Origin: Parachryseolinea silvisoli
GTDB taxonomy: Bacteria; Bacteroidota; Bacteroidia; Cytophagales; Cyclobacteriaceae
Direction: 5' to 3'
Assembly: GCF_021190955.1 (NCBI RefSeq)
Contig: NZ_JAIOAO010000001.1
Coordinates: forward strand, 1,426,001-1,490,000
DNA: 64,000 nucleotides
Shown: one piece after another, positions 20,641 to 41,001 of the stretch
How positions within the stretch are numbered: the stretch's first letter is position 1
Layout: each line of letters opens with the position of its first letter
Notes under the pieces: generated by a model
Seen by the model: only the letters and a program-made list of their open reading frames with translations
Databases searched by the model: none
What the model was told of the DNA's origin: nothing
Translations under genes and position numbers: made by a program

Positions 20641-22371
20641 CTAACCGAAGTTAAAATTATATCCCACAGTCACGGTAAGATCGTGCGTAGACGCACGCTC
20701 CGAACTGTTTCTCAGCTGATTCAATACATTCAGCATAAGCGCATGCCGCTTGAGCACATTGTACACGGCGTTACACCGGATGTTTAGTACTCGGGTATCC
20801 CACGCATTATCGGTCTTGCTCGCATTGTACGATATGCTGGTGCCGGTCGTAAGCTTTTTCTTGAATAGCTTCGCGTTTGCTCCCACGGTAGGCCCCAGTG
20901 TAATAAAGTCGTTTCTACCGATGGTGTTATAGGTAACGTTAAAGGCAGCTAAAACATTAAATCCCTGGGCAAGCTGCATAAAGTTATATTGTACGGAGCC
21001 ATTGTAAAACCGTGAGCCGTTGCCGTTGCGTACAACACCGCCCTGTTTGTCGCCGGTCTCCTGGAAGCTGACGTCAAACGTCAACATGCGCATGACTGCA
21101 TCGGTTTGTTTCAGGGTGTAGCTCAGTGTGCCGCTGGCATTTTGCGATGTCTGTGTGTAGTCCAGTGTATCCAGCTGCTGGAAGTTGTCGAGTTGATTGA
21201 TGGTCTGGAACTGCGGCCGGATACGCATGAAGGTCTGAAAGTTGGAGTAGTTCAGCACAGCCGATATTTTAGTCGTCGGTATATATGAAACATTCAGGGC
21301 GCCGATGGCCCGGGTCGAAGAACCGGACTTATTACCATCCAGGTTGTCACGCTGAAAGCCTGCATTCATGGCGATCTGTACTTTTCCGTTGAACAACGGC
21401 TGGGCTGCATTGACGGTGATATTCTCCAGATCATTGTTGATATAATAGGCGCCCAGGGTCTGGTACCCGGGATCAACACGTTCGTACCCCACGCCGAGGA
21501 CAGTGTTCTGCAAGGTGTATTGCAGCGCTGTTTTGAATGCATTGTAAAATCCTGTCGAAGCCTTACTATCAACAAGCGGACCGAGGATTCCTCTGCCCGT
21601 AGCATCTTCCGCGCGAATGTCGCGCGTGAGGGCGCTGGTAGCATACTCCACCGACAGGTCGAGGTTCTTCACGACCTCCAGGCCTCCGTTTACGCTGACT
21701 ACCGTATTTTCCATGGGATAGATACCGAGGCTATCCGGGGCATTCCGGAGGGAGTGTGGGTCGTCCCACGCCCGGAAGACGATCAGGCCGGCGCGGTATT
21801 TCCCTTGCTGAAATTGCAGGCGCGCTCCAAATCCCTTGCGTTCATACGCCGCAGGCACAGTGTGATTGGCCGTATCATATTCATTTGCCTTCTGCAACCG
21901 TCCGTGGATTACGCTGCCTTTAAAGGGCCCTTCGGGCTCGACATCCACTCCTGCTCCGCGGAACAGATAACCGTTGAGTGTATAGGGAGAGAAGGTCATA
22001 GCGATGTCGCCGATGTGGCCGGTTACGGATTTATAGGATGGGTGTATGCTGAACCGGTTAGATGGAATGGGGTAGGTGTAGTTTCCACCAAAGTCCGACA
22101 GGGTAAACGTGAACGGCAGATTGACGACATTGTACAGGTTCATGTTGATGCTTCCGTTTACAAAATAGGAAAACGGGCTTCGTCCATACCCTCCGTTACC
22201 ATCATAGAATATGCCGTTGGCGGCCAGGCCTCCACTGAAGCGAATGGGCTTGCCGTTGCCGAATTGTTCTTTGAGGTTGTCTAGCCGGACCGATTGAGCT
22301 GTTGCCTGAAACACAATGCCGGGCAAAAGGATCAACAGTAGCGCAGAGAGGATGCGTAGAAGTGGTCTCAA
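20641..22371 (-). CDS. probable outer-membrane beta-barrel protein, last gene of the surface operon
   Basis: A 576-residue exported protein (signal peptide MRPLLRILSALLLILLPG...ATAQ). The body is rich in alternating amphipathic strands with aromatic girdle residues (SGGLAANGIFYDG, YAGLIVFRAW-like, VLGVGYERVDPGYQTLGAYY) and ends in a Tyr/Phe strand VTVGYNFNFG, as in outer-membrane barrels. The start is TTG at 22371, whose last bases overlap the TGA of the upstream PKD gene, so translation is coupled. Being encoded with a SprB-repeat, T9SS-sorted protein, it might anchor or export other products of the operon, as SprF does for SprB, but it is longer than PorP/SprF proteins and I do not place it in that family. 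Confidence 0.7.
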   Translation of the reverse strand: MRPLLRILSALLLILLPGIVFQATAQSVRLDNLKEQFGNGKPIRFSGGLAANGIFYDGNGGYGRSPFSYFVNGSINMNLYNVVNLPFTFTLSDFGGNYTYPIPSNRFSIHPSYKSVTGHIGDIAMTFSPYTLNGYLFRGAGVDVEPEGPFKGSVIHGRLQKANEYDTANHTVPAAYERKGFGARLQFQQGKYRAGLIVFRAWDDPHSLRNAPDSLGIYPMENTVVSVNGGLEVVKNLDLSVEYATSALTRDIRAEDATGRGILGPLVDSKASTGFYNAFKTALQYTLQNTVLGVGYERVDPGYQTLGAYYINNDLENITVNAAQPLFNGKVQIAMNAGFQRDNLDGNKSGSSTRAIGALNVSYIPTTKISAVLNYSNFQTFMRIRPQFQTINQLDNFQQLDTLDYTQTSQNASGTLSYTLKQTDAVMRMLTFDVSFQETGDKQGGVVRNGNGSRFYNGSVQYNFMQLAQGFNVLAAFNVTYNTIGRNDFITLGPTVGANAKLFKKKLTTGTSISYNASKTDNAWDTRVLNIRCNAVYNVLKRHALMLNVLNQLRNSSERASTHDLTVTVGYNFNFG

Positions 22372-23711
22372 GGTTTTTGTATTTTGATATCAACGACGAT
22401 ATACGATTGGAGCGCGTCGCGGTGGAACTCTTTGATTTTGATGGCGCCCTTGCGGTCGTCTTTCGTTCGGAAGAGCACGATGCGCGGAAGCTGGCTGTCG
22501 GTAAAAGGCTTGAGCCCGGTAGCCCGCGATGTGATGTTCAAATTGCGCAACGGTACATCGGTCTCCATCTGGTCGAAGTCGGCTTCGGTAAAGGTTATAC
22601 CACAGCCGCACGTTTCTTGTGTATTGATGAAATGTGTGGTCTGTGCCTGTGTGAGTGCCTCGAACGTATACTGCTGTACTGAGTCGGGTGAGACAAAGCG
22701 ATTGAATGCAAAGGTTGCATTCAAGCCGAAGAAGGCGATGTCCACATACTGGTCGATCGAATCGGGATCATCCTTGTGCATAACACGTCTCAGAAATGTA
22801 GAATAGAAGCTGCCCACGGTACTGTGCGCGGTGTTGACGCCCAGCATGATGTCGTGGTGCGTGCGCAAGCCGGTGTTGGGCTTCACGACAATCTCCCGGT
22901 TAATGCTTTGCGTCACTTTGCCGTTGTCGGCGGTGAGTGTTATGGTGTATGTACCGGGCTGTGCAAAATGAACGGACGTCTGCTCTGCCGTTGATTGCTG
23001 AATGTCGCCGCCGGTACTGGTCCACTTCCAGGTAAGGCCGCCGATGGTGCTGTTTATCAGCGATGCGGTGAGCGGCGCTTCGTAGTCTTCGTCCTGGAAC
23101 GACGGCTCGATGGCAAAGTCCATGGCCAACGCGGGCAATACGGTAATGGTCTTGGCGATGGAATCTATTTCATCGCCGTTCTCTACTACCAGCGTGATGG
23201 TGTGTTCGCCGGGTATAGTATATTCTACTACCGGTGGATCGTGGCCGGTAAACGACGCAGGCATACCTTCCGGAAACGTCCAGTGATAGGCGGTGCCACC
23301 GATCGTGGTGTTGGTGAGCGTTACCTGCACAGGTGAAATGCTATTGGTGGCAATACTTGTTTCAAAGTCGGGCGAGAACGTACCCAGAATGCGCAGGGAA
23401 ATTTCCTTCGTTTGGCGGTCATCGCCGTTCCAGGCTTCCAGGCGTACGGTGTAGGTACCGCTGGCGGTATAGCGCACAGCGCCCGGATTGTACTTGTCGG
23501 ACGTCTCGGGGTCGCCGCCTTCAAAAGTCCACAGGTAGTGCTCAGCGCCGGTGGTTTTGTTCTCGAAGGTTACTTCCACGGGTATGGAATAGTCTTCGTT
23601 TACCACCTGGTAGGCAAAGCTCACCGCAGCCGGTATGGCTTCTTCGTGAAAACAGGAGGCCAGCGGCAGCAATGCCGCGAAGATATAGTATGATAGGATC
23701 TTAGAATGCAT
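22368..23711 (-). CDS. lipoprotein with three PKD domains
   Basis: A 447-residue protein with a lipobox (LLPLASC, Cys20) and three PKD-type domains in tandem (about 30-110, 115-195, 200-285). Each carries a YLWTF/YHWTF/WKWTS strand and a GTYTVRLEAWNGD / GEHTITLVVENGD / GTYTITLTADNGK ending. The last ~150 residues are a separate unknown domain with QETCGCGITF and a VDIAFFG segment. PKD modules usually mediate protein or glycan contacts at the cell surface. In-frame ATGs at 23726 and 23735 would lengthen the overlap with the upstream HEAT-like gene. The stop overlaps the next gene's TTG start. Confidence 0.85.
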   Translation of the reverse strand: MHSKILSYYIFAALLPLASCFHEEAIPAAVSFAYQVVNEDYSIPVEVTFENKTTGAEHYLWTFEGGDPETSDKYNPGAVRYTASGTYTVRLEAWNGDDRQTKEISLRILGTFSPDFETSIATNSISPVQVTLTNTTIGGTAYHWTFPEGMPASFTGHDPPVVEYTIPGEHTITLVVENGDEIDSIAKTITVLPALAMDFAIEPSFQDEDYEAPLTASLINSTIGGLTWKWTSTGGDIQQSTAEQTSVHFAQPGTYTITLTADNGKVTQSINREIVVKPNTGLRTHHDIMLGVNTAHSTVGSFYSTFLRRVMHKDDPDSIDQYVDIAFFGLNATFAFNRFVSPDSVQQYTFEALTQAQTTHFINTQETCGCGITFTEADFDQMETDVPLRNLNITSRATGLKPFTDSQLPRIVLFRTKDDRKGAIKIKEFHRDALQSYIVVDIKIQKP

Positions 23712-24639
23712 CGCGTATGATTTCATACTTTCCATTCTGCTGTTTAAACCAGGCCCGCGTGGTTTCCAGGGCTTGGGGATAATTGTTCGTAGCTACACCA
23801 CCACCGGCGGTGGCTGCTACCGGGTAATCTTTGATGACCGGTGCCAGCAACTCCATGACGCGGTAGGCACACGTCATTTTCTGACGTGACTCGGCGCTCG
23901 GCGCGCCGCACTTCCGTTCATCACTGAACAGAACTTCTTCCAGGTAGTGTATGGCGCGGTAGCTGCGGGTATAGACCAGGTCGGGAAAGAGCTCATAGAC
24001 AGCATCGTCGTTTACGCCAAACATGCGGACGCGGTTCAGAATCACGTCAACAGCTTGCTGATCGCCCAGGCGTGCCAGGGCGATATAGCCTGCCCAGCGG
24101 TCCTGAGCGCGCAGCGCCGGCGCTTCTTCTTCCACATAGGATTTGATTTTCAGTGCAAGATCTTGTAGTTGCAAATAGCCCACGAGCCTAAACAAGGCGC
24201 CGGGGCTGGAAGGAAGTCTTCGCACCCGGCTGCGGACAGAATCGAGCGCAGCGCGGTCAAAGTCCTGGGATTGAAAACGTGCCAGTCCGTTGTCGACCAG
24301 ACGCTGAATGCCTTTGTCCTTATCCTGCCAGCCGCGGATTAAAACACTCACAACGCGCTTGCGGGTGCTCTTTTGCTTTGTCTTCGTTCCCAGTTGGCAC
24401 AATAGATAATAGGCCTCTGCACGCAGCGATGAAACCGTGTCCTGCAAGTAGGCGGTCAGTGGCGCGATATACTGATCTTCTTTTTTTGCTTCAAAGGAAA
24501 GTGACGTTACCGCCTGCTTGTCGCGCATGGCCGTAAAGTGGGCATCGACTTCACGCTTTTGTGCGGAAGCCTGCAAGCCGAGGACAAGTAGTAATATGGT
24601 CGTCGTGTGTAGCAACGACAGAGAGGATATTTTTATCAT
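23701..24639 (-). CDS. exported HEAT-like repeat protein
   Basis: A 312-residue protein with a signal peptide (MIKISSLSLLHTTTILLLVLGLQASAQ). The mature part is almost all helical, with repeat-like blocks such as YIAPLTAYLQDTVSSLRAEAYYLLCQLG, RWAGYIALARLGDQQAVDVIL and RAIHYLEEVLF that follow the HEAT/Armadillo pattern. Such solenoids act as scaffolds. The start codon at 24639 overlaps the TGA of the preceding gene in an ATGA, so this start is strongly favoured over the upstream in-frame codons. The function is not known. Confidence 0.72.
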   Translation of the reverse strand: MIKISSLSLLHTTTILLLVLGLQASAQKREVDAHFTAMRDKQAVTSLSFEAKKEDQYIAPLTAYLQDTVSSLRAEAYYLLCQLGTKTKQKSTRKRVVSVLIRGWQDKDKGIQRLVDNGLARFQSQDFDRAALDSVRSRVRRLPSSPGALFRLVGYLQLQDLALKIKSYVEEEAPALRAQDRWAGYIALARLGDQQAVDVILNRVRMFGVNDDAVYELFPDLVYTRSYRAIHYLEEVLFSDERKCGAPSAESRQKMTCAYRVMELLAPVIKDYPVAATAGGGVATNNYPQALETTRAWFKQQNGKYEIIRDAF

Positions 24640-25616
24640 AGGTAATTTTCGATAACAACACGGTTCACCCACAGGACCAGCTCCCGGTTTTGCTCCCACC
24701 ATTGGCGAACGATTTGTACGTTCTTTTTCTTGATGGCTTCGTCTTCCGTCGCGGGCGGTTTGGTGAGGATCATGCCCGTAATCCGCTGAAACTCTTCGCC
24801 GGCCTGCGTGCGGCGGGTGATGTCGCTACCGTCCAGCGCCTTCAGGATGGCGGCGATGCGCCGGCTGTAGTCTAGGTTACGGTATTCCGGCCGTTGTAAG
24901 GTTGCCTCCACTTTTAGAATGACGTCTTTGTTGCCATTCCACCAGTTGCGGATCGAGGGCGCCAGCTGCGGTTCGTCTGCCGGCCGCACCAACCGATCCT
25001 TTACGCGATCTCCCGTGAGGTAGGTAATGATCTGAAAGGGCGAGATATGTCCATGCTGGGTATTGCTGTTCTGCATATAGTCGAGCATGCGCGGAACGAC
25101 GCTTTCATAGTTCAGCACTACATCGAACTTTACCGAGTCTTTGATTTGCCATTCGTAGGCTACACACAGCATGTATTTACCGGGATAGGTAAATTCTTCC
25201 AGCAGGTCGTTGAGTTCGAATTTACGGGTACGCGTATCGCCGGTATGCAGGGTGGTTTTTGTTTGGGTGAACTGGTCCAACCGAAGCTGGCCCGACGCAC
25301 TCATGCTATAGCGATAGGTACCGCCCAGTGCACGGTACCAGCCTTGCTCTTCAATCGCCACGTACCGACCCTTTTCATACTTCTTCAGTTGAAAAAAGAG
25401 CCAGCCAGTTTCCAGGTCGAATGTTTCCACATTGCGTTTTGCTTCCAGCGTGACCGTGAGCGGAATGGCATCACCAAAGGCAGCACGGGTATTGGACAGT
25501 TTGACCTCCAGATGCAGGTCTCCGCCCGTCAATGTCAGTGCTGACTTCAGTTCCTGCGCCAGGGCTGTTACACCCGACAGTATAACAGCCGAAAAAATAC
25601 ACACTACTCTTTTCAT
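24636..25616 (-). CDS. exported protein of unknown function with a duplicated WW..N motif
   Basis: A 326-residue protein with a signal peptide (MKRVVCIFSAVILSGVTALAQ). The N-terminal half is beta-rich and Ig-like (LHLEVKLSNTRAAFGDAIPLTVTLE, FTYPGKYMLCVAYEW). The C-terminal half is helical and carries two copies of one motif: RNWWNGNKDVILKV and RQWWEQNRELVLWV, separated by about 80 residues. I do not recognise a family. Both ends overlap their neighbours by four bases (ATGA), so it is coupled to the TANFOR-like gene before it and the HEAT-like gene after it. Protection against or folding of the protease-like neighbour is a possible role. Confidence 0.6.
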   Translation of the reverse strand: MKRVVCIFSAVILSGVTALAQELKSALTLTGGDLHLEVKLSNTRAAFGDAIPLTVTLEAKRNVETFDLETGWLFFQLKKYEKGRYVAIEEQGWYRALGGTYRYSMSASGQLRLDQFTQTKTTLHTGDTRTRKFELNDLLEEFTYPGKYMLCVAYEWQIKDSVKFDVVLNYESVVPRMLDYMQNSNTQHGHISPFQIITYLTGDRVKDRLVRPADEPQLAPSIRNWWNGNKDVILKVEATLQRPEYRNLDYSRRIAAILKALDGSDITRRTQAGEEFQRITGMILTKPPATEDEAIKKKNVQIVRQWWEQNRELVLWVNRVVIENYL

Positions 25617-28600
25617 CGTTCTCTTCCCCGAAGCTTATTGATACTTTCTGCGCTGAACTCGGGATTTCCTATCTGGTTAAAAAATGTCATCCCCCCGGAG
25701 GGACTCATGAGTCCTTCTTCGGCATGATCCTCACCGGCTTTGAAAACACCAAAATTAGTGTGATCACTACGGTGGCCGATCTCATGCCTTCCCGCGATTT
25801 GAAGTCGCTTTTCACCTTTCTTCGCCGTATTCTTGAAAAACCATGCGATATTGAACTGTTCCGATCCGTCGATCGCGCCCCAATCTCCATCGGCACTGAT
25901 GCTGATGGGTTGTGTAGACGTGCCAACATTAATCAGAATAAAGGGAGGATAATAGTTCGTTTTCCCCGTGGTCTCATCACCATCATGTTTGGGATGCAAG
26001 TACCGGACGCTAACGCTGGATGGCCGCTGGATACCATTGTCCTTTGCAAATTTTTCCAGTTGCACGTCAATATGGCGTTGGTTGGCATCATACCATGCCT
26101 GCGCCTTCACTTTCATGCGGCTCTCGGCAGCGTCCTGCGCCGGTTTGTTATACGTTGTGAAAGCATCCAGGTCCGCTTTGGAGGGAAGCTGTTCGGGCGT
26201 CGGATCCAACAGCGTGGCTACAAATTCTTTCGCGCTGGTAGCCGCTAGTTTGACGACACTCTTTGCCGCAGTGTAATCGGTGCATCCATCTTTCGAGAAC
26301 GCCGGGTCAATGCTTGCCTTGCTCATGACCTGCGTCATATTCAGCGAACCGGGCATCTCGTAAACATAATCGTTTGTTACGTTCTTCCGCACGGTCCAGA
26401 TACCCGTTCGGCCGCTCTTCAACACGCTAGCATTTTTACCCACTACTTCCGCCACGACGATATAGTTATCGCCGGCAATGGCAGACGAAACAAACTTCTT
26501 GAGACTTTTGCCTTTGTTCTCACCATCACCGGCTGTGGTCGCCCACTGCTTTTCCTGGGTTGTTAGCAGGCCATATCCTGAACCCTGCGGTAGCTTCCAG
26601 CCCGCGGCAATACCACCATCCGATATACTCGTATTGTCATTACCTTCCGGACCGTTGCGGTCAATGATTCGTTTTGCGTCGTTGGCAACATCGTCAGGAT
26701 CTTCAAAACGCCACTGCACTGTAAGTGGCAACGCTGTGGCTACCCCCTGCCCTTTTTTATTCCGGATCCTAACCAATGCCTGGACATCTGTCAGAATCTC
26801 TTTGGCATTACGGTCCGGCTTGACGATGCTCAGCGCACCACCCGGCGTTAGCGTAACCGACTCGACCTCTACACCAACTTCCTTTTCATCCGAATAGCTC
26901 GTACTGAATTTTTCATCCATGCCCACGGTCAGTTTCACTTTATAGGGTGAGTCAACGATATCAATATAAGAACTATAGCTGCTGCCATTCGTCTTGCCAT
27001 CCCAGGAAATCTTCACGTTCTTTCCTTTCGCAGCAATCTTCGTATCCACGTATACCGGTACCGAGCCTCCCTTAGCAAATACTTCCAGCTTGGCATACTT
27101 CCACTCGCCGGACTTGCCGGGGGTAACATCGTAGGTGATATCCAGGTTTTCTTCCGACGGGGCAAAGAATTTGTCGGTCGTCAGTTTAATATATGCGGTT
27201 TTGATTGTCACTTTGGCTTTGGCTGGACCCGCCGCCACTGTCACAACTCTTTCGTCCGGCCTTGTATCATCCATATCCACGACGGCATTCGTACCGGTAC
27301 CTTCCGCACCCTGCCAGGTAACATTTTCCGCATCCAGTGCTACAGAAGGCACATCACAGACCACGCGCAACGCCAGCTCGTCTTCCGCGTCGGTTACATA
27401 AATGCATTCGCCGTCTTTATATTGAACATTGTTGTAGACAACCAGTAGGTCGAACGATGCAAATCTTTCTATTACTTTCAGACAGACAACACCTTCCAGT
27501 ATCGATTCGTCCGTCAGGTCGAATACTTCATCTTTAACAGTTTGTACAAATGCCTCCAGGGTATCGTTGTCTGCCAGAATATTGTCAATGACACGCTCGA
27601 TACCGGCCGCCTGTTTTTCCTGCGATTCGAAACAGTCTTTCAAAACGCCTTTACCGGAGACAAAGTCCTGAATATTGACCTGATATCCTTTTAAAAGCAT
27701 AAGCACTTTCGCTGCAATTAGATCTTCGGGCTTCACCTCAGGTGGGGCGTCAACCCCGGTCGGCTGGTCGCCATCTGTTTCCACATTGGTCTTCGGGAAC
27801 AGTGTCAGCATAAACGGTGGGTTGTGAATGAGGTCCCACTGGGCTTTACTGAGTGTCTCTCCACCAGCATAATCCATTAAATTATCGGTTCCGTTCATGG
27901 GCAGCCCTTCCTCGAATGTATGCAGCAACCGGAAAGCACCGTGGCCGATCTCGTGGGCGATGGTGTGGGTAAAATCACCAGCATTCTTTTTGGCGTCATC
28001 ATGCATAAAGATAAATGCAGCCTGACGCTTATAGGGATTGTAACCCGACGCCTTGTCGGTCTCCGCCTTCGACACGAGGAAAGCATAGTGTGCCTCGGGG
28101 TCGAACGGCTGCCGGGCGGCATAGTCTTGCAGCACCAGGGTCATTTCCGTTGTATAGAGATAATTAACCTGATCAAAATTATCCTGCATGCCGTTTTTAT
28201 CCAGGTCATAGTGGCTTGTGAGCGATGGTTGCATTTCCACACTCCATTCCACAACGGCCTGACGGTAAATCTCATTCATGCGTTTCTGAACATCTGCGAC
28301 CGTGCAAGGCATGGTTTCGCCGTTGACCGGTACGATAATCAACTTACGGTATACACGCGGGTAGCTTACTACATTCAATTTGCCGCGGGCGACGGGCACG
28401 TCTTTACCATTCATTTTCCGTTTCTCATAGGCAATAACCGGATTGATTTCTCCTTCCGCATAGCCATATACCTTTACCTCATAGTGTGTCGGGGGCACTT
28501 TCTGGGTCGTGAGCGGCCCCGTATCCGAACGCACGAACATGCTATCCGGCAGCGGGTCTGCCGGGTTTATCGGCACCGCCCGTACCCGATCGGACTCTCC

Positions 28601-30517: not shown

Positions 30518-30532
30518 GAAAATTCTATTCAC

Positions 30533-30590
30533 ACGTTTCTTACTAGATCAGCCCTTTTACCAGGGCAGTACCGCTCGCGGCTGCTAACAT
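30533..30590 (-). promoter_or_regulatory. intra-operon spacer with alternative hairpins
   Basis: This spacer between the SprB-repeat gene and the TANFOR-like gene is the longest in the operon. GCCCT/AGGGC (30551-30566) forms one small hairpin, and GCAG..CCGC/GCGG CTGC (30565-30584) another that shares two bases with the first. They could attenuate or process the transcript. No U tract is present. Confidence 0.35.
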
Positions 30591-33500: not shown

Positions 33501-34265
33501 GGCATTGCCACTGGCGCTAACGTTGATCGACGTTGGTTTTTTCCACGCGCCGTCGTATATAATCGTTTGCCTTACGATCGGGTCGGGGCCAATTTCTGTA
33601 TAGCCATCGTAGGCTTCCGCCAGCAGCTGCGAATTACCTTGCGGGCCTACGGCTGTAATGGTATACCGAAAGTCTGTTTTGGCAGGACTCAGGCGCAGGC
33701 CCTGCGGATCGTTCAGATCGATCGCCGGATCGTTAGCCAGGTTCTCGTTGCTGTTATTCCGCAGATCGGAATCGACCACCAGCCGCACACTGCTTTTGCT
33801 GAAGGGGATGATCTCGACGTTGACTTCCGAACGGCCATCCAGGTACGGAAACTTCCCCAGGTATTTTTGCTTGTGACACGGATAGCTGGCGGTGGTATCC
33901 AGTTGGATAAACGCCGTGCCCTCTCCAATCTTTCGACGACGGCAAGACTGCGTCCAGTTGCCTTGCCGGTGTGCCCGCGCGAAGCACTCGACGCTTTTGA
34001 TCTTGTTTTTACTATCGAACGGGAGGTCGATGGCAAAGTTGTGCTGACCGCCCCCGTGCTGACCTCCATAGACTTGCCTGCGCTGGCCGCCCTGATAATT
34101 TACATAGATATCAATGCGACTTCCGCAGCCCTCGCTAAGGTCGCCGTTATACAGGGCGAACCCCCGAAGTCTGATCAGGTATTGACTCGAAAAATCACTC
34201 TGTGATACAGCCTGCGTGGTAATCAATGCTACCAGCAGAAATGCTCCAACCAGTTTTTTCATCAT
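30591..34265 (-). CDS. SprB-repeat surface protein with T9SS type A sorting domain
   Basis: A 1224-residue protein with a signal peptide (MKKLVGAFLLVALITTQAVSQ). Residues 20-520 hold unknown beta domains. About 535-960 carry SprB-type repeats, with Cys-Tyr/Asn-Gly..DG starts and GTY.V.V.D..GC ends (HCYGGSDGKINL, QCFGYNNGAIDLTV, GTYEVVITDGNNC). A PKD-like stretch follows. The last ~75 residues are a T9SS type A sorting domain (SPVPSNGPFTV, LAAGTYLLLLES, LKVVIQ). It should be secreted by the type IX system and attached to or released from the surface. SprB itself is the mobile gliding adhesin; this protein is far smaller and is probably an adhesin or assembly component. ATGs at 34262 and 34265 are equivalent. 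Confidence 0.83.
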   Translation of the reverse strand: MMKKLVGAFLLVALITTQAVSQSDFSSQYLIRLRGFALYNGDLSEGCGSRIDIYVNYQGGQRRQVYGGQHGGGQHNFAIDLPFDSKNKIKSVECFARAHRQGNWTQSCRRRKIGEGTAFIQLDTTASYPCHKQKYLGKFPYLDGRSEVNVEIIPFSKSSVRLVVDSDLRNNSNENLANDPAIDLNDPQGLRLSPAKTDFRYTITAVGPQGNSQLLAEAYDGYTEIGPDPIVRQTIIYDGAWKKPTSINVSASGNAWLGQNWTDENGNSYFIPIAARPQAASIDIPLPDILVPGTVSVPYVLFPGATTSQLRITTTGYSFPIKYGPDNTNILPYDSRVTVLAPAWNPASFYHWVYSLDGINWKDFPAQFQGKHRLQISGYDLEGEEFMKNPVANRFIKLIIDCNGGESSVLTLSGRISAPQIVGVAPLHDRCFDRPRDGAFTITFRRPLLVDENGNREQLTILVRDLSNTNPPDQVIDVTLDAQNSFTWPRRLQSDKEYEITLLDTYLGTFGYTGNRQFHYANVALVRPQPVSSVVAAEDVHCYGGSDGKINLQARGGVGNFVFDYVVAGTEDSLHLSLGVETEAVLSLLPPATYYVMLRDANRCKDQNGVKTMVVHQPNAALRIGYSAITHPLGYGYEDGYIETILTGGTPYPDKHYTTEWYNPTDLVSDVLYNNAPLSEGYKANLDSIGDGSYILRAFDSQYTLAHPDHRAGCYVASEIFHVIQPPPIVVTLSEYHYVTCNGFDDGEVLASAQGGVQMTGPLPYQYEWLIVEDAGTRPINQDDSIAIRLRSGTYRIRITDKNRVQKLSSPFFLVQPDVLAAQITGTPVSCDSGADGTALATVQGGTLPYVYEWSDGTTLQQTGNLAAGTYFVFVADVRGCTTTASGKVESPFPIQVDSVLRAPQCFGYNNGAIDLTVANGTAPYQYAWSTGATTEDMAGLTEGTYEVVITDGNNCKSVHTYTLVDPAPVLVDLGQTRFLCNSQHYEADASLNDEGAQYQWTGPAGFTATTGIITITQAGTYHVLVTDANGCDGEDELVVQRQTLDINAEFVVSTQGFSATDVTLLNISSTPSDSVQWWTSDPLAEQFSLREDNKAVVAFSEEGVYTLYMKAYRQGCEAVFSKTITVLGTSFVVNPPTATSFIETFTASPVPSNGPFTVTVKMKESSRIQLRLIALGDNRLVDERTAQGSNEYVLPYMVNLAAGTYLLLLESTNGDALLKVVIQ

Positions 34266-34280
34266 GATAGTATTCAACCA

Positions 34281-36347
34281 TTAATAATTTACGACGACCC
34301 ATTTTACCCGGCTCATTTCGCCGGTGCGCGTTACAACGCGAATACCATATGTGTATTCCGTGTTGATGGTGGGTGCGTTGTCTATAAGATGTTTTTCGTT
34401 TTTAACGATCTTCCACAGGGTGGCAGGCTCGCCGGCTTTCTTTTTGTAGAGCTGATATTCTTCTACGTTCTTGAGGTTGTCCGTCCAGAACAGGTCGATG
34501 ATGTGTTTTTCCCGATCGACGTAGGCGTTGAAAATGTTTACCGTCAGATCGTCAGGATTGCCGGGTATCTTCAGTGTAACCGGGTGGGCCGGTTTTGATT
34601 CCAGGCGGCTGGAGTCCTGGCTAATCAACGTGTAGGTATAGGCATGTCCGCGCAGCACATCGCTGTCTGTGTACTGCCCCGGCGTTGTGGCTTTGTATTG
34701 CTGCACGGCCTGCCAGTTTTGTTCGTTATCGGTTTTGCGGTAAAGCGTGTGGGCGGCAACGTCGGCATCGCGTGCATCGGCCCACGTAAGTTTTATTTTA
34801 TAGTCCACCAGCTCGTAGCGCGTAATGAGCGGCGACGTCGGGGGCACGACATCGGGCTTCAGGGCCGCCAGACGCGGTGAGAATGCCGACTGGTTATAGC
34901 GTTTGTCCAGGGCGGTAACTGCATAGAAAATCTTGCGGTTGCTCATGCGCATGCTAACGGTGTCGGTATAGGATGTACCGAAGAACACGGAGTCCGTGAG
35001 GGACGTAAGCTCCGCATTTTTTACATAGGCGCGAAACACCTTGTAGCCCAGCAGGTCTTTTTCAGCGTTTGGCGTCCACGACACTTTCACCACGCCGGCC
35101 GAGTCGATCATCACCTTCAGGCCTGTGGGCGGCGCGGGTGCGATGCTGTCCACCGGTTGTACCAACACGGGCATAGACGTGCGTGATTCACCTTCGCGCG
35201 CATCGGCGGTAATGGTGAAGTAGTTTGTTTCGAATAATTTATCATAGCGCACCGAGCGCTGGCCCGGGGCAATGGCTTTTATCACTGGAAAGAAGGGCCC
35301 CCGCTCCGTCTGCGACTGATTTATTGTGAACCCTTTAATCAATGCGTTGCCGGCGCCTTCAAACTCCCAGCTCAGTTCTACACTACCAGCCTCGGTCATC
35401 AAAGCCCGACTGATGTGCGGAACGTATGCCAGCAATTTCTTACCGACGCCGGAGACTTCTGCCGAAGGGGGACCTGTCTCTCCAAAGGGTGTAACACCCA
35501 CTACACGATAATAGTATGTAACGTTTCGCATACCCACGGTGTCGATGTAGTGCACGCGCGAGGGCATATTCTTTGTAGGCGGCTCGCCGATTTGCGCCAC
35601 GGGACGCTCGGTAACACGATAAAAGTTTCGTCCGTCAGAAGAACGTTCGATGAAATAAGCGTTGTAATAATCTTTCAGTCCGTCGTAGTCCCAACTTAAC
35701 ATGGCGTTCTTGTCGGTAAAGGCCACGTTTAGGTCTGACACAGCCGGCAGCGGCCGATGATTTTCCAGGCCTATAAATACACCCGTCGAGTCGATCGGCA
35801 TTTGTCCGTTGGGGGCAGCCGAGGTAATGCGATACAGGTATTTTTCGTTGGTCTTTACGTCGGTGTCGACAAGCCCCCACCCCGCCAGCAGCGCGGCGTC
35901 GAAGCTGCGGTCGGCGGCGTATAGGGACAACGTAAAGCGCTGCTCTGACTCTTGGGACTGGTTGACGGCAGACAGTATACCCTTCTGATCTGTACCCGAC
36001 ACCTCGAAGCTTTCACCATAGAGGGCCTGGGCAATGATGGCGGCGTATTCGTCGCGGTTTACGGCGGCTTCCCACGACGCCTGCGGCGCCGGTTTAAACA
36101 CACCGAGCTTTTTCGGTTCGGGGGTTTTCAGCATGGCCTTGTCCCGAATTACCGTAAAGCGTGTTACTTCAAACCCGTAGCGGTTTGACAGTTTCCATGC
36201 TTGTGCGTTCGTCACGCCCCAGCGGATCAGGATTTGTCGCGGTTGTGCCCGGCCGACTGCACGCACGGCGGCCACCCGCTGTGCAAACGAAGGTGTACAC
36301 AGCAGGGCCAGCAAGAGAAGAACTATTATCTTAGAGAGGGGACGCAT
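34281..36347 (-). CDS. exported fibronectin type III repeat protein
   Basis: A 688-residue protein with a signal peptide (MRPLSKIIVLLLLALLCTPSFAQ). The region around residues 160-650 contains four or five FN3-type domains, recognised by PPTGLKVMIDSAGVVKVSWTP, GYKVFRAYVKN, IKLTWADARDADVAAHTLYRK and YRVVGVTPFGETGPPS. The N-terminal ~160 residues (VRAVGRAQPRQILIRWG) may be another divergent one. FN3 arrays act as spacers or binding modules in surface proteins. No sorting domain or lipobox is visible, so it may be periplasmic or rely on a partner. It starts four bp after the giant gene ends and is followed by the SprB-repeat gene within 15 bp. Confidence 0.82.
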   Translation of the reverse strand: MRPLSKIIVLLLLALLCTPSFAQRVAAVRAVGRAQPRQILIRWGVTNAQAWKLSNRYGFEVTRFTVIRDKAMLKTPEPKKLGVFKPAPQASWEAAVNRDEYAAIIAQALYGESFEVSGTDQKGILSAVNQSQESEQRFTLSLYAADRSFDAALLAGWGLVDTDVKTNEKYLYRITSAAPNGQMPIDSTGVFIGLENHRPLPAVSDLNVAFTDKNAMLSWDYDGLKDYYNAYFIERSSDGRNFYRVTERPVAQIGEPPTKNMPSRVHYIDTVGMRNVTYYYRVVGVTPFGETGPPSAEVSGVGKKLLAYVPHISRALMTEAGSVELSWEFEGAGNALIKGFTINQSQTERGPFFPVIKAIAPGQRSVRYDKLFETNYFTITADAREGESRTSMPVLVQPVDSIAPAPPTGLKVMIDSAGVVKVSWTPNAEKDLLGYKVFRAYVKNAELTSLTDSVFFGTSYTDTVSMRMSNRKIFYAVTALDKRYNQSAFSPRLAALKPDVVPPTSPLITRYELVDYKIKLTWADARDADVAAHTLYRKTDNEQNWQAVQQYKATTPGQYTDSDVLRGHAYTYTLISQDSSRLESKPAHPVTLKIPGNPDDLTVNIFNAYVDREKHIIDLFWTDNLKNVEEYQLYKKKAGEPATLWKIVKNEKHLIDNAPTINTEYTYGIRVVTRTGEMSRVKWVVVNY

Positions 36348-36351
36348 GTTG

Positions 36352-39300
36352 TTACTTGATCGGATTAAAGTACGAGAACACTCCCGATGAACCTTTGCTA
36401 CCGTCGGGCAGCATATACTGGAAGTGTACCTTGTAGGGCCCATAGCGCATCATGGGATAGGTGCCCATAATGATATAGGCGTATTGGCTTTGCTGCGATG
36501 TGCCCAGGAATCTGTTCACGATCTGTGCCTGCAGGTCGATGAAGTCGCGCTGGTAGGTGCGCGTGAGGTCGTAGGTATACGGCATACGCGTGGCCGGGTG
36601 TGGACTCGACTCATCGCTCAGTGCGTTTACATAGAACTGCTGCACCGGCAGAGCACGGCGCGGGTATAAGCCCAGCTCGGTTGTATCGCGGTTGGTCAGC
36701 ACAATGTTTTGCGCCACCGGATAGTATCTGTACAACAGCGGGTAAATATCCTGACGGTAATGCTCGTCGTCGGGAATGGCGTTGACAATTACCAGCGGCG
36801 ACTCATGCGTATAACTTGTACCGGTAATCTCATGCACATCGAACGGCTCGTAGCTGGCCATGAGGGGCTGCAGGTTGATGACATCCGACGAAACCTTGCC
36901 TACATACGGCTCGCGAATCGACAGGCCTTTTACCTTGTCGGCAAAGCGCGTGTGCTTGCTGGTGTGGAACGAGTAGTCGATCAGGCTTTTGCCTAAGCCT
37001 ACCTGCAACACGTCGGCCGCCTGGTTGTTTTTAACGGTCAGGTCGCCGTCTTCTGTTTGAATGCGTTGCTCGGGTGTTGCACCAGGCTGCTGTGCCTTGC
37101 CCGGGTCGGTCGGCACGGCGACAAGGCCCATGAAATAGGTATTCGACAATTCCAGTGTGGGGATGGTAAAGTCAATGCGCTTCTCAGCAACGTTATAGAC
37201 TACCGTCTGTTTACCATATACTTTGCCGGTTTGGCCCATGCGGATTTCGTAGTTCCAATCGGTCGGGAACAGATAGGACTGACCACGTTTCAGCTGGATA
37301 TACCCCGCCGGGCTTTCATCGCGGTAATAGTTACGTTGGTCCACCACCGGGTAGGCATACTCGACGTTGGACAACGGAATGTTGTCGGGTGCTGTACCGG
37401 TCACAAAGGTTACCTCTTTTGACTCGACGGCTTTCTGGCCCTGGTCCATTACTTGTTGCCACGTTTCACCGCGTTGTATTTCAAAGCTTACCCGCACACG
37501 TGCTTTCAGCTCTTTCTGCGGCGGCAGTACTTCGGTAGAATAGAAGGTGGCAATGTCCTGGTTGTTATTCCACACCAGCTTGCCGGGCACAGCCTGACCG
37601 TTTTCGGTTACGGTAAATTCTTCCAGGCGGATGCGATAGGTCTTCGTGCCCTCGTCGTCGTCGATGTAGAATGGTTGCTCCATGCGCATGTTAAAAGCTG
37701 CCTGTGGCGCGGCGAATACGTCTACTGCTTTAGATTGATCCACCGGTTTGAGGTCGGAGATTACGTTCAGTACCAGCGGGCTGCCCGAATCGTTTACAAT
37801 ATGGCAATCGTCACCCAGTGATATCTTCAGGCGGAAGCTACCGCTGACCAATCCTCCCAGCACATCCACACGCACGGCCAGGTAGCCTTTAAAGGCGGTG
37901 GGATTGGGCAACTTGGCTTGCAGCAGCACGGCGGCGCCGCCACTCATGACCGAGAACTTTTTCTTGATACCAAACAGGCGAATCGATACGCCCACTTCAC
38001 CCTGTAAATACGCATAAGCCTGCCCGTTGGCATACCAGCCGCTGATACCGATGGGGTCGTTTGACCCTTCGCAATGAGCGGAGCCATAGTCGCGCAGCAT
38101 GATATCGAAACCGGCTCCTGCTTCAAAGTTTGCGTAGAGTATCAGGAAGTTGATGTCGCCGGTGGAGACGCTAAAGTCTGTACCGAATGCAAAGCCGCGG
38201 CCATCGGCCAGTGCGTTGAGGTCACGCATGTAGTCGAGCTTTTTAAGTTCGATGCCGAGGATGTCGGCCACCATGCTGGGTGGCGGGGGTGCGTCCAGCA
38301 CTTTGCTGCCCGCCATGAAGTAGGCACCGGTCTTCATGCTCATGCTGCCAAGGCCAAATTGTATGCCCATGCGGTCGACGGGCGTACCCATGTGTACGTA
38401 CCACTCGCCCTGACCGATGTGCATAACCGACCAGCCGGCGCGGTTGTTGGCACCGGTGCCGCGTAACAAACCGCCGGCTACGTTTACATATACATCAAAC
38501 GTAGAGTGGAATGTTTTTTCCGAAAAATCCATGAGCATGCCGACGTGTGCCGATATCATGCCGCTGGAACCGATCTTGTTCAAATCGCCCATGATTGCCT
38601 GGGCAGCACGCGAGGGCTCTTCCATCTTCATGCGGTCCAGCTGTTTGGCTAGCAACGGGTTGTCTTTCAGATACGCTTCTTCATATTTTGCCAGCGTCTC
38701 TTTTTGTTCGTTGACAAACTCTTCTATATTTTCCGTACCGGGTATCTTACCCATGAACTTGGCGTCGCCAAAGATGCCGATGTAGTTGATACCAAAATTT
38801 TTATTGAAGCCTATTTCGAATGAGGCTTCGCCATCGATCAGGCTGCGGGTGGCGATGTTAAACAATACAGCGGCTTTAATGCCGAAGTAGGTCTTGGCAT
38901 CGGGCACGTAGCTCATGTTATTGGCTATGCTTCGCTTCATGTGGTACGACGCACCGCCACCAAAGCCGTGGATGCGCAACGGGCCCACCACGGGTATACC
39001 GTCGCCATACGACACCGAGCCGTCTACAAACCAATAGCGGAATTCTTTCGAGCCGAACATGGCCCGAGCCTTTACTTCTACATTAATCGGAATAAAGGTT
39101 GCCTGCAACTGACCAGCCACGCCATTGCCGTATATCGGATCGTCTTCCATGATGACGATCGAGCCGTCGATTTTCAGCGTGCCGCTGATCGTGGCGTGTA
39201 TAGTAATGGCGCTAATGCCGATACCATCGTACTTCCACGACTGGTTGCCGTGCTCATCGCGCCGCAACGCGCTCTTTACCTGTAGCCGGGTGGTGGCGCC

Positions 39301-41001
39301 AAACTGCGACTCCATGAGGTTCAGTTTGATGGTAAAGCCCAGTGCTGCCTTGCCGTTCTGCGCGGTAACAGCAATATTTTCCAGCGACACGGGAAAGCTG
39401 GCAAACTTTACTTCGCCGGCATAGCCAAAGTATTCTACTTCGAGGTAGGGCGCTTCGGTCATGATGTGCAGGGAGCGAAATTCAAGGCCATCAAATTTTC
39501 CGAGGGAGCTGCCACCACCGTCGCTGCTGCTGATGCCCATGCTCATCCGCCCGTGCAGCATGGCTTCCGGGCGGAAGTGATCGTCTTTGAGGTGAAGCTG
39601 TACCCACGAGTTGGGATCTATCTCGACTTTGGCTTTCCATAACGTGAAGTCGAGTTTGTTGCGTGTTTCTACCCGCAGCATGTAGTCGTCGGGCATCATG
39701 ACAGCCGTGTAGGCAAACAGATCGTCTTCGGCTACGGGCAGGCCGATCAATCCTTTAAAGGATGCACCGGTAAGGTTGTTTGCCTCCAGGGCAATGCCGA
39801 TTTCATCCACGGAGAATTTCCATCCCGATGCCGTTCCATTCTCAATGGGCAGTACACTTTTCTCCGCGAAATAACCCGACAATCCGTTGTTGTCGATCAG
39901 CATGTTCATGCCTGTAAACGAAATGCGTTTGCCAGGATCTGCGCTATCTTCAAACTGCTTCGGCAACGTGATGCCTACCGTTTTTGCGTATACACCACGC
40001 CAAAGCTCGGGACTGCCCGGCGTCATGTAATTCGTCTCGTAGTTGCGCGGGTAAATTATATTGGGACTGTTGCGTATATCGCTCAGGTCGAGCACTGCGC
40101 CGCGAAGCTGAAAGACGATGTCGTTTAAGTACGGTATTTGAAAATCGGGAAGGTTCAACTCGATGAGCATATCGCTCCAGTCGGCTACCACCGTGGCAAA
40201 CGACCCTTTTACGCGTTTGTTGGGATCTTCAATACGCTCGCCTGTTGCGTTTACGGGAATCAGAAGGCTTCGGGGAAACTCCACATCCGCGGCAATGCCC
40301 AACTCTTTAAAACCATTGCAATCAAAGGTCAGGTATGTGCGCGAGCCCGTGGAAGCGGACCCGGCCAGGTTATTCTCTCCTTTTAATAAGAGTGCACTGC
40401 TGCCACCGTTGATGCGCACGGGTATATCGCCCAGCAACACCAATTTCGCATCGCCTACGATTCCCCCATCATACGAGAGCTTGATACCTTCCAGGCCAAA
40501 AAAGAGCTCTTTCGGTTCTTGTGGTATTTCGATGCGGGCAAAGGCGGTGAGCTCGGCATATGTCGCCTGAAACTTTACCTGGCTGATCGCGATAATAATG
40601 TTCCGGCCATTGACCTCCTTTTTCATTCCCAGCGGAAGCTGAAACAATCCATCGGGGCGAAGCTCACCGACAAAGTTGTTGATGTCGATCAGCTTTTCGA
40701 TCACGTCCTGTGCGCGCTGCTTCAACGACTCGGCTGCGGTTTGCTGGCCTACATAGTGCTGAAGATATTCCTGTGTCAGCTCGCTGGTATGGTTGTCGAA
40801 CAGAAATTCTTGTGACAACAACTGATTGAGTTGTGGAAAATTTCTGATATCGCCAACGGACGGGACGGGCGCATCGGCGGCGGTGGAATCCGTAGGATCG
40901 GTGGATGCAACGCTATACGCGGGAAGAGAACAAACAACCAACGCAAGGCAAAGCCCTAACAGATACAAGATCCTGCGTTTCGCGGGAGAAGTTAAACACA
41001 T
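36352..41001 (-). CDS. giant exported beta-rich protein of unknown family, first gene of the surface operon
   Basis: A 1549-residue protein with a signal peptide (residues 9-31, LLGLCLALVVCSLPAYS). Residues 90-740 and 810-1080 are mainly long beta strands with few Cys (FFGLEGIKLSYDGGIVGDAKLVLLG, AVLLQAKLPNPTAFKGYLAVRVDVLGG-like), suggesting a repetitive fold. A charged helical stretch (about 750-800: EEFVNEQKETLAKYEEAYL) divides the two parts. The C-terminus (about 1090-1549) includes Ig/FN-like domains. I recognise no family, catalytic motif or sorting domain. As the lead gene it is closest to the operon promoter and possibly the most abundant product. A structural or shell role is conceivable. 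Confidence 0.7.
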   Translation of the reverse strand: MCLTSPAKRRILYLLGLCLALVVCSLPAYSVASTDPTDSTAADAPVPSVGDIRNFPQLNQLLSQEFLFDNHTSELTQEYLQHYVGQQTAAESLKQRAQDVIEKLIDINNFVGELRPDGLFQLPLGMKKEVNGRNIIIAISQVKFQATYAELTAFARIEIPQEPKELFFGLEGIKLSYDGGIVGDAKLVLLGDIPVRINGGSSALLLKGENNLAGSASTGSRTYLTFDCNGFKELGIAADVEFPRSLLIPVNATGERIEDPNKRVKGSFATVVADWSDMLIELNLPDFQIPYLNDIVFQLRGAVLDLSDIRNSPNIIYPRNYETNYMTPGSPELWRGVYAKTVGITLPKQFEDSADPGKRISFTGMNMLIDNNGLSGYFAEKSVLPIENGTASGWKFSVDEIGIALEANNLTGASFKGLIGLPVAEDDLFAYTAVMMPDDYMLRVETRNKLDFTLWKAKVEIDPNSWVQLHLKDDHFRPEAMLHGRMSMGISSSDGGGSSLGKFDGLEFRSLHIMTEAPYLEVEYFGYAGEVKFASFPVSLENIAVTAQNGKAALGFTIKLNLMESQFGATTRLQVKSALRRDEHGNQSWKYDGIGISAITIHATISGTLKIDGSIVIMEDDPIYGNGVAGQLQATFIPINVEVKARAMFGSKEFRYWFVDGSVSYGDGIPVVGPLRIHGFGGGASYHMKRSIANNMSYVPDAKTYFGIKAAVLFNIATRSLIDGEASFEIGFNKNFGINYIGIFGDAKFMGKIPGTENIEEFVNEQKETLAKYEEAYLKDNPLLAKQLDRMKMEEPSRAAQAIMGDLNKIGSSGMISAHVGMLMDFSEKTFHSTFDVYVNVAGGLLRGTGANNRAGWSVMHIGQGEWYVHMGTPVDRMGIQFGLGSMSMKTGAYFMAGSKVLDAPPPPSMVADILGIELKKLDYMRDLNALADGRGFAFGTDFSVSTGDINFLILYANFEAGAGFDIMLRDYGSAHCEGSNDPIGISGWYANGQAYAYLQGEVGVSIRLFGIKKKFSVMSGGAAVLLQAKLPNPTAFKGYLAVRVDVLGGLVSGSFRLKISLGDDCHIVNDSGSPLVLNVISDLKPVDQSKAVDVFAAPQAAFNMRMEQPFYIDDDEGTKTYRIRLEEFTVTENGQAVPGKLVWNNNQDIATFYSTEVLPPQKELKARVRVSFEIQRGETWQQVMDQGQKAVESKEVTFVTGTAPDNIPLSNVEYAYPVVDQRNYYRDESPAGYIQLKRGQSYLFPTDWNYEIRMGQTGKVYGKQTVVYNVAEKRIDFTIPTLELSNTYFMGLVAVPTDPGKAQQPGATPEQRIQTEDGDLTVKNNQAADVLQVGLGKSLIDYSFHTSKHTRFADKVKGLSIREPYVGKVSSDVINLQPLMASYEPFDVHEITGTSYTHESPLVIVNAIPDDEHYRQDIYPLLYRYYPVAQNIVLTNRDTTELGLYPRRALPVQQFYVNALSDESSPHPATRMPYTYDLTRTYQRDFIDLQAQIVNRFLGTSQQSQYAYIIMGTYPMMRYGPYKVHFQYMLPDGSKGSSGVFSYFNPIK

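What the first reader, a model, noticed from the sequence alone, without database searches (positions are those of the whole stretch)
20641..41001. Eight-gene, 20-kb operon of only exported proteins: a candidate undescribed surface assembly
All eight genes are leftward. The spacing is 4 bp, 15 bp, 73 bp, then four successive start/stop overlaps: an ATGA at 25616, an ATGA at 24639, an overlap of about 10-35 bp at 23701-23735 and a TTGA at 22371. Every product has a signal peptide or lipobox. The order is: giant beta-rich protein, FN3 protein, SprB-repeat T9SS protein, TANFOR-like two-HExxH protein, WW-duplication protein, HEAT-like protein, triple-PKD lipoprotein and barrel-like protein. The coupling suggests fixed stoichiometry, as in a complex. 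Only one member has a T9SS sorting domain. I know of no described system with this composition.
Basis: partly seen in the sequence, partly recalled or inferred. Interest (0 to 1): 0.8.

Follow-up and report, generated by a model that had tools for sequence, protein, structure and literature searches.

The report
Toxin operon with conserved delivery chassis
These eight genes look like an antibacterial weapon of the Bacteroidota, a giant toxin with its antidote gene and a recurring set of surface proteins that includes a very large outer-membrane barrel whose link to such toxins I did not find in print.

Summary
The eight-gene leftward operon is real. It is not a purely structural assembly: g4 behaves like a polymorphic toxin of the TANFOR kind (Jana et al. 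2020, PMC7073777). Its first ~912 residues are conserved widely; its last ~720 are private, as is g5, the likely antidote. Among 30 relatives N-parts match in 435 of 435 pairs, tips in 47 of 435; next genes in 7 of 351 pairs of 27. Two 94%-identical relatives switch tip and next gene abruptly. Sister tips include AHH-nuclease and DNase domains. The other genes form a chassis that recurs in order, up to circular permutation: a large predicted outer-membrane barrel of 25-26 strands (g8), giant g1, FN3 protein g2, often SprB protein g3. In deep lineages g1 is fused to the TANFOR-like domain. I found no published mention of g8 or g1 as partners (open-access library). NCBI's TANFOR cut-off is not met (32 of 67 bits), so I call it a divergent variant of a known kind. 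Open and testable: whether g8 is a dedicated exit or an accessory of type IX secretion.

The parts
36352..41001 (-). g1, giant beta-rich protein, 1549 aa, first gene; chassis
   Evidence: No Pfam/NCBIfam family over cut-off; in 36 of 148 family genomes and 49 of 395 phylum genomes; fused to a TANFOR-like domain in deep lineages
34281..36347 (-). g2, FN3-type protein, 688 aa; chassis
   Evidence: In 48 of 49 g1 loci (some loci are the same place from two sources), 21 of 21 TANFOR-like loci, 8 of 8 deep-lineage loci
30591..34265 (-). g3, SprB-repeat protein with a weak T9SS-type tail, 1224 aa
   Evidence: PF13573 7.8e-25; Por_Secre_tail under both cut-offs; in 35 of 49 g1 loci
25613..30517 (-). 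g4, TANFOR-like polymorphic toxin, 1634 aa
   Evidence: N-part conserved, C-part private
30056..30451 (-). TANFOR-like domain of g4 (residues 23-154)
   Evidence: TIGR02542 1.3e-7, 31.7 of 67 bits; 7e-8, 32.5 bits with residues 1-907 alone
29453..29653 (-). FN3 domain of g4 (residues 289-355)
   Evidence: PF00041 8.2e-8, over cut-off
27920..27955 (-). mid zincin motif HEIGHGAFRLLH just before the variable part of g4; candidate release protease
   Evidence: Motif at the same place in relatives; weak zincin-family matches in single members only
25616..27781 (-). private C-terminal cargo of g4 (residues 913-1634)
   Evidence: GC3 0.535 against 0.60-0.66 in the other operon genes
25760..25786 (-). 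second zincin-like motif HEIGHRSDH near the end of g4
   Evidence: no Pfam family for this tip
24636..25616 (-). g5, exported antidote (immunity) candidate, 326 aa
   Evidence: ATGA coupling to g4; found in 1 of 148 family genomes, the own; same place as the varying next genes of relatives
23701..24639 (-). g6, HEAT-like exported protein, 312 aa; accessory chassis part
   Evidence: In all three own-genome copies, whose tips differ (window)
22368..23735 (-). g7, triple-PKD lipoprotein, up to 455 aa (start uncertain); accessory chassis part
   Evidence: PKD; also in L042, L043 and in G340a, G344, G457, G426
20641..22371 (-). g8, large outer-membrane beta-barrel, 576 aa, TTG start; chassis
   Evidence: AlphaFold2 model, 27 sequences, pLDDT 80.4, pTM 0.66, 25-26 strands; Foldseek finds large outer-membrane barrels; near TANFOR-like genes across the phylum

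Best explanation
A toxin/antidote pair with its own delivery chassis. (1) All products cross the inner membrane by Sec (signal sequences, by eye). (2) g8 forms a very large outer-membrane barrel (predicted structure). (3) g4 works like a TANFOR polymorphic toxin: its conserved N-part is the handle that couples it to the chassis, its private C-part is the cargo (split shown by comparison; coupling inferred). (4) The mid-protein zincin beside the variable part frees the cargo (inferred from place and conservation). (5) The cargo of this copy ends in a second zincin-like motif and probably acts as a metallopeptidase in the periplasm of rival cells; g5, exported and translationally coupled, is its antidote (inferred). 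(6) g1, g2 and g3, with g6 and g7, build the surface part that holds or presents the toxin (co-conservation and g1-TANFOR fusions shown; role inferred). (7) The way through the outer membrane is g8, the type IX secretion system, or both; this is open. The confidence given is for a toxin/antidote pair on a conserved chassis; for g8 as the main exit I give about 0.4.
For: Conserved N-part and private tip: 435 of 435 N-part pairs, 47 of 435 tip pairs (16 over at least 40% of the shorter) in 30 relatives; 7 of 351 pairs for 27 next genes; the window's tip and g5 match none. Tip swap between 94%-identical loci L033 and L034, with unlike next genes. C-part and g5 absent elsewhere in the family but for one 28% match over ~105 residues; last 260 residues own only in 355 genomes. 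Toxin-type sister tips: AHH nuclease over cut-off in the own C6 copy and in L124, VPA1263-type DNase match in L090 (3.6e-31 but under its whole-protein cut-off), weaker ADP-ribosyltransferase and TNT matches. Imm11-like next genes beside AHH tips, under cut-off. Array of eight paralogous small genes behind one toxin. Chassis. g8 model. T9SS translocon SprA in the genome. Published class.
Against: No toxicity, immunity, secretion or processing is shown here. Of ten tips scanned, five, this one included, had no Pfam match up to E 0.1. The TANFOR domain is under its curated cut-off. The own C7 copy has no separate antidote gene between g4 and g6. g5 has the GC3 of the other genes, not that of the tip. 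8 of 38 unfused g4 relatives looked at lack the mid zincin. In deep lineages the core stands without a recognisable toxin tip, so the chassis may have another first purpose.
Confidence: 0.8

Rival explanations
1. Same toxin, but it leaves through the type IX secretion system, as proposed in 2020; g8 is an accessory barrel in the manner of PorP/SprF and g3 the surface adhesin.
For: SprB and T9SS-tail neighbours are enriched around TANFOR genes and over 95% of TANFOR genomes have T9SS (PMC7073777); SprA in the own genome and in 14 of 14 core-bearing genomes tested.
Against: No T9SS sorting tail on g4, g1, g2 or g8 nor on ten C-termini from deep-lineage giants and g2 proteins; 25 of 27 g8 members...: no PorP/SprF match in any of 27 g8 sequences. 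SprA was not tested in a set without the core, so searches do not discriminate.
Confidence: 0.4
2. A structural surface assembly or adhesion organelle in which g4 is an enzyme part rather than a weapon.
For: Chassis genes are co-conserved over the phylum, and deep-lineage copies have g8, a TANFOR-like giant and g2 without a recognisable toxin tip; this copy's tip matches no known toxin family.
Against: Private tip and private next gene, tip swap between near relatives, known nuclease domains on sister tips, small-gene array.
Confidence: 0.12
3. Ordinary neighbouring genes for exported proteins without a joint function.
For: Exported-protein operons are common in Bacteroidota (general knowledge); no transcript data.
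Against: Recurring order and company in many genera.
Confidence: 0.01

Closest known systems
TANFOR-containing polymorphic toxins of Bacteroidetes (Jana, Salomon and Bosis 2020, PMC7073777; text parts 1-3 of 6 read)
   Same: N-terminal TANFOR-like domain with FN3, signal peptide, variable C-terminal toxin part, antidote gene directly downstream, neighbours with SprB repeats, FN3, PKD and a T9SS-type tail
   Different: Domain match under the curated cut-off; exported antidote candidate and zincin-like tip; constant partners g8 and g1, mid zincin and g1-TANFOR fusions, for which a term search of that paper's main text (metallo, peptidase, protease, barrel, HEAT, giant) found nothing
Two-partner secretion with CdiA/CdiB (recalled)
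   Same: Works alike in outline: outer-membrane barrel gene beside a giant exported protein with a swappable toxic end and an antidote gene
   Different: g8 has 25-26 predicted strands and no POTRA-like domain and no Omp85/TpsB-type Pfam match
F. johnsoniae SprB/SprF adhesin export (PMC10202324, passages seen)
   Same: SprB repeats and a barrel gene in one cluster
   Different: No PorP/SprF match in g8 relatives; toxin/antidote pair in the operon

Membership tests
TANFOR polymorphic toxins | N-terminal TANFOR domain at the curated cut-off (TIGR02542, 67 bits) | tested here: not met
   31.7 bits, E 1.3e-7, nearly full length. Of nine A1 members five match at 0.001, best E 1.2e-10; of eleven whole relatives scanned five match, 23.8-40.6 bits, none over 67
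TANFOR polymorphic toxins | Variable C-terminal part on a conserved N-part | tested here: met
TANFOR polymorphic toxins | C-terminal part is toxic | not testable with these tools
   Sister tips carry nuclease domains; this tip matches no family
TANFOR polymorphic toxins | Antidote gene directly downstream | tested here: inconclusive
   g5 is coupled and private; protection not tested
TANFOR polymorphic toxins | Sec signal peptide; SprB, FN3 and PKD neighbours | tested here: met
   (signal by eye)
T9SS substrate | C-terminal sorting domain on the toxin g4 | tested here: not met
   No match on g4; weak tail on g3 only
Two-partner secretion (TpsB/CdiB) | 16-strand Omp85-type barrel with POTRA domains | tested here: not met
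   25-26 strands from residue 43 on, no POTRA-like domain before them
PorP/SprF barrels | Match to the PorP/SprF profile | tested here: not met
   Pfam scan of 27 g8 members: four families matched in one member each, none of them PorP/SprF

The most novel reading that the evidence does not exclude
g8, the TANFOR-like handle, g1 and g2 are the core of an unrecognised outer-membrane export and display system found across the phylum and older than its use for toxins: g8 is a dedicated exit of about 26 strands for TANFOR-handled giants, which carry either the g1 shaft or, in later lineages, a zincin-released toxin.
Probability: 0.3. Interest if true: 0.85.

Novelty: new variant of a known kind. 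Interest (0 to 1): 0.62.

Why it matters
How TANFOR toxins leave the cell was left open in 2020. The constant partners seen here (barrel g8, giant g1, FN3 protein g2) turn that into a few gene deletions, and the g1-TANFOR fusions hint at a physical partnership. If g8 is the exit, Bacteroidota have a dedicated toxin exporter beside T9SS. The chassis order also gives a way to find toxin/antidote pairs that the curated TANFOR cut-off misses.

Tried and rejected
Chance cluster: rejected by conserved order in relatives. g6 (HEAT) as the antidote: not preferred, because it accompanies all three own-genome copies although their tips differ. g8 as Omp85/TpsB or PorP/SprF: not met. Phage or anti-phage system: no PHROGs match at 0.01 for the 4 of 8 proteins given (g4 as its C-part) and no PADLOC match for the 6 of 8 given.

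Led nowhere: AlphaFold2 of the g4 C-part alone, pLDDT 33.6; PDB sequence searches with the tip and with the g8 profile, no match; with the g4 N-part profile the 60 of 223 matches shown lie in or around the FN3 region; promoter and terminator scans; T9SS presence as a discriminator (no contrast set).

Limits. Genome searches score only a few candidates per genome, so counts are lower bounds. Its Fisher values ignore kinship. One search looked at 35 stretches and kept 30 ORFs with the mid-zincin motif, so there the motif is present by selection; 8 further unfused g4 relatives lack it (L064, L069, G340a first copy, G457, G426, G387; L146, L147). L042 (same place as L034), cut-off copies L056 and L058 and fused forms were not. 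No next gene was called for L032, L033 (at the end of the held stretch) and G340a; the one called for own_C7 is g6. One search printed only the last nine ORFs of each stretch and my ORF picker dropped overlapping ORFs; one search repeated the check on all frames and added g8 in L149 and g8 and g2 in L137.
Full report
Observation. The eight leftward genes, their order and the described overlaps are in the sequence. Two labels rest on matches under curated cut-offs: the T9SS tail of g3 and the TANFOR domain of g4. The window lies in a 7.9-Mb genome. A named relative of the locus is Ohtaekwangia koreensis DSM 25262 (L034); I take it to be the same place as G074, which is marked same genus, because the contig lengths agree.

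Conservation and order. g1 is found in 36 of 148 family genomes, at three loci in the own genome. Of 49 g1 loci held with their downstream side (some are the same place from two sources), 48 have g2, 35 have g3, 13 have g4 and 9 have g8 in the stretch. In O. koreensis the order g1, g2, g3, g4, a different small gene, g6, g7, g8 recurs. On the upstream side of g1, 16 of 20 fetched loci have g4, separate or fused, and 15 of 20 have g8, typically as g8, g4, next gene, often g6, then g1. Without g4 there are L150 (stretch ends at the contig end), L151, L152 and L155; the last has g8 on its other side (L066). In L153 g4 runs the other way. The window order is a circular permutation of the common one. 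The own genome has two more copies, on C6 and C7, in the common order.

Phylum. In 395 genomes the g4 N-part profile has matches in 148 (many cover only FN3), g1 in 49, g8 in 114 (weak tail included). With the stricter hand-picked rows (see limits) g8 and g4N share 64 genomes, 4 have g8 only, 9 g4N only, 318 neither; 46 of 86 g8 loci lie within 2 kb and 63 of 86 within 20 kb of a g4N locus on the same strand; 36 of 48 g1 loci lie within 20 kb of g4N, 12 do not. Twenty g8 loci have neither g4N nor g1 listed within 20 kb; for one of them, own C7, both were found later next to it. Around 21 strong TANFOR-like loci, g2 is present in 21; g8 in 19, and in G455, whose upstream side was not fetched, one search places g8 directly upstream; g1 stands alone in 14 (in one it is split by a stop), is fused to the TANFOR-like protein in 3 and was not detected in 4. 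In eight further loci chosen mostly from deep lineages, g8, a TANFOR-like giant and g2 are present in 8 of 8, and the giant also holds g1 in 5 of 8.

Polymorphic cargo. Comparison of the window's g4 with nine relatives stops by residue 923 of the ORF in every case. In 30 relatives with the mid zincin, N-parts match in 435 of 435 pairs and tips in 47 of 435 (16 over at least 40% of the shorter); 27 next genes match in 7 of 351 pairs; the window's tip and g5 match none. In 148 family genomes the g4 C-part is seen in the own genome and as one 28% match over about 105 residues in another, and g5 in the own genome alone; the last 260 residues are seen in the own genome alone in 355 phylum genomes. 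The C-part has lower GC3 (0.535) than the other operon genes (0.60-0.66); g5 (0.633) does not differ. L033 (a MAG) and L034 are 94% identical over 17.6 kb; the match ends inside g4 near codon 1090-1118 and the tails and next genes differ. The own C6 tip is an AHH nuclease over cut-off, as is that of L124; weaker matches are AHH in L096, TNT in L100 and ADP-ribosyltransferase in L032; five of ten tips scanned, the window's among them, had none. A DNase-effector model matches the tip in L090 at 3.6e-31, under its whole-protein cut-off. One locus has eight related genes of 125-153 aa behind the toxin (L057), as immunity arrays do.

This locus. The cargo has a second HExxH near its end and matches no family, so metallopeptidase action is inference. 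g5 has a signal peptide by eye, while most next genes printed do not; an exported antidote would fit a periplasmic target.

Barrel. The g8 model from 27 sequences (pLDDT 80.4, pTM 0.66) shows 26 strands, one of them very short, from residue 43 to the end. Foldseek's first rows by E-value include S-layer outer-membrane proteins (TM about 0.33 to the query), the Mtr-complex barrel (0.50, the best TM among the 50 rows shown), FimD ushers (up to 0.46) and TonB-type receptors (about 0.3-0.4). This is likeness of size class, not membership.

Known or not. Jana et al. (PMC7073777; parts 1-3 of 6 read) described TANFOR polymorphic toxins, a DNase tip tested with its antidote, enrichment of SprB, FN3, PKD and T9SS-tail neighbours, and proposed T9SS export. 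A term search of its main text for metallo, peptidase, protease, barrel, HEAT and giant found none. Library searches for TANFOR and for T9SS with polymorphic toxins listed no other paper on this class that I recognised (listings seen; supplements and subscription papers not searched). Passages and term counts of a 2023 review of T9SS effectors show no TANFOR and no polymorphic in its main text. A term search of a 2025 paper on a toxin-related superfamily found no TANFOR or SprB. So the class is known; the divergent branch, the constant partners g8 and g1 and the g1 fusions I did not find reported there.

Verdict. A toxin/antidote pair on a conserved delivery chassis. It works like a TANFOR polymorphic toxin; I do not file it as a formal member because the curated domain cut-off is not met. 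Whether g8, T9SS or both carry the toxin out is the open, testable point.

Noticed in passing
L057:8235 onwards: Eight related genes of 125-153 aa follow the toxin gene, like an immunity-gene array.
   Followed up: partly
L131:8565-15273: The own C7 copy of g4 (1806 aa) is followed after 112 bp by g6; no separate antidote gene was seen. By eye its tip resembles that of L060 (a nucleotidyltransferase-like stretch).
   Followed up: no
41177-43582: An 801-aa ABC-type permease (by eye) lies just upstream on the same strand; ORFs of the same cluster also lie near the g1 loci in L041 and L045.
   Followed up: no
L136, L137, L138, L139, L140: TANFOR-like domain and g1 in one ORF of about 1800-2300 aa, beside g8 and g2.
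   Followed up: partly
L089:2631-7484: A g1 relative split into two ORFs by a stop codon.
   Followed up: no
L105, L107, L109: One to five extra genes of about 390-570 aa that match the g3 profile stand between g2 and the large SprB gene.
   Followed up: no
own genome (G000): 27 matches to the CHU_C family PF13585, all over cut-off: many T9SS-type exported proteins.
   Followed up: no
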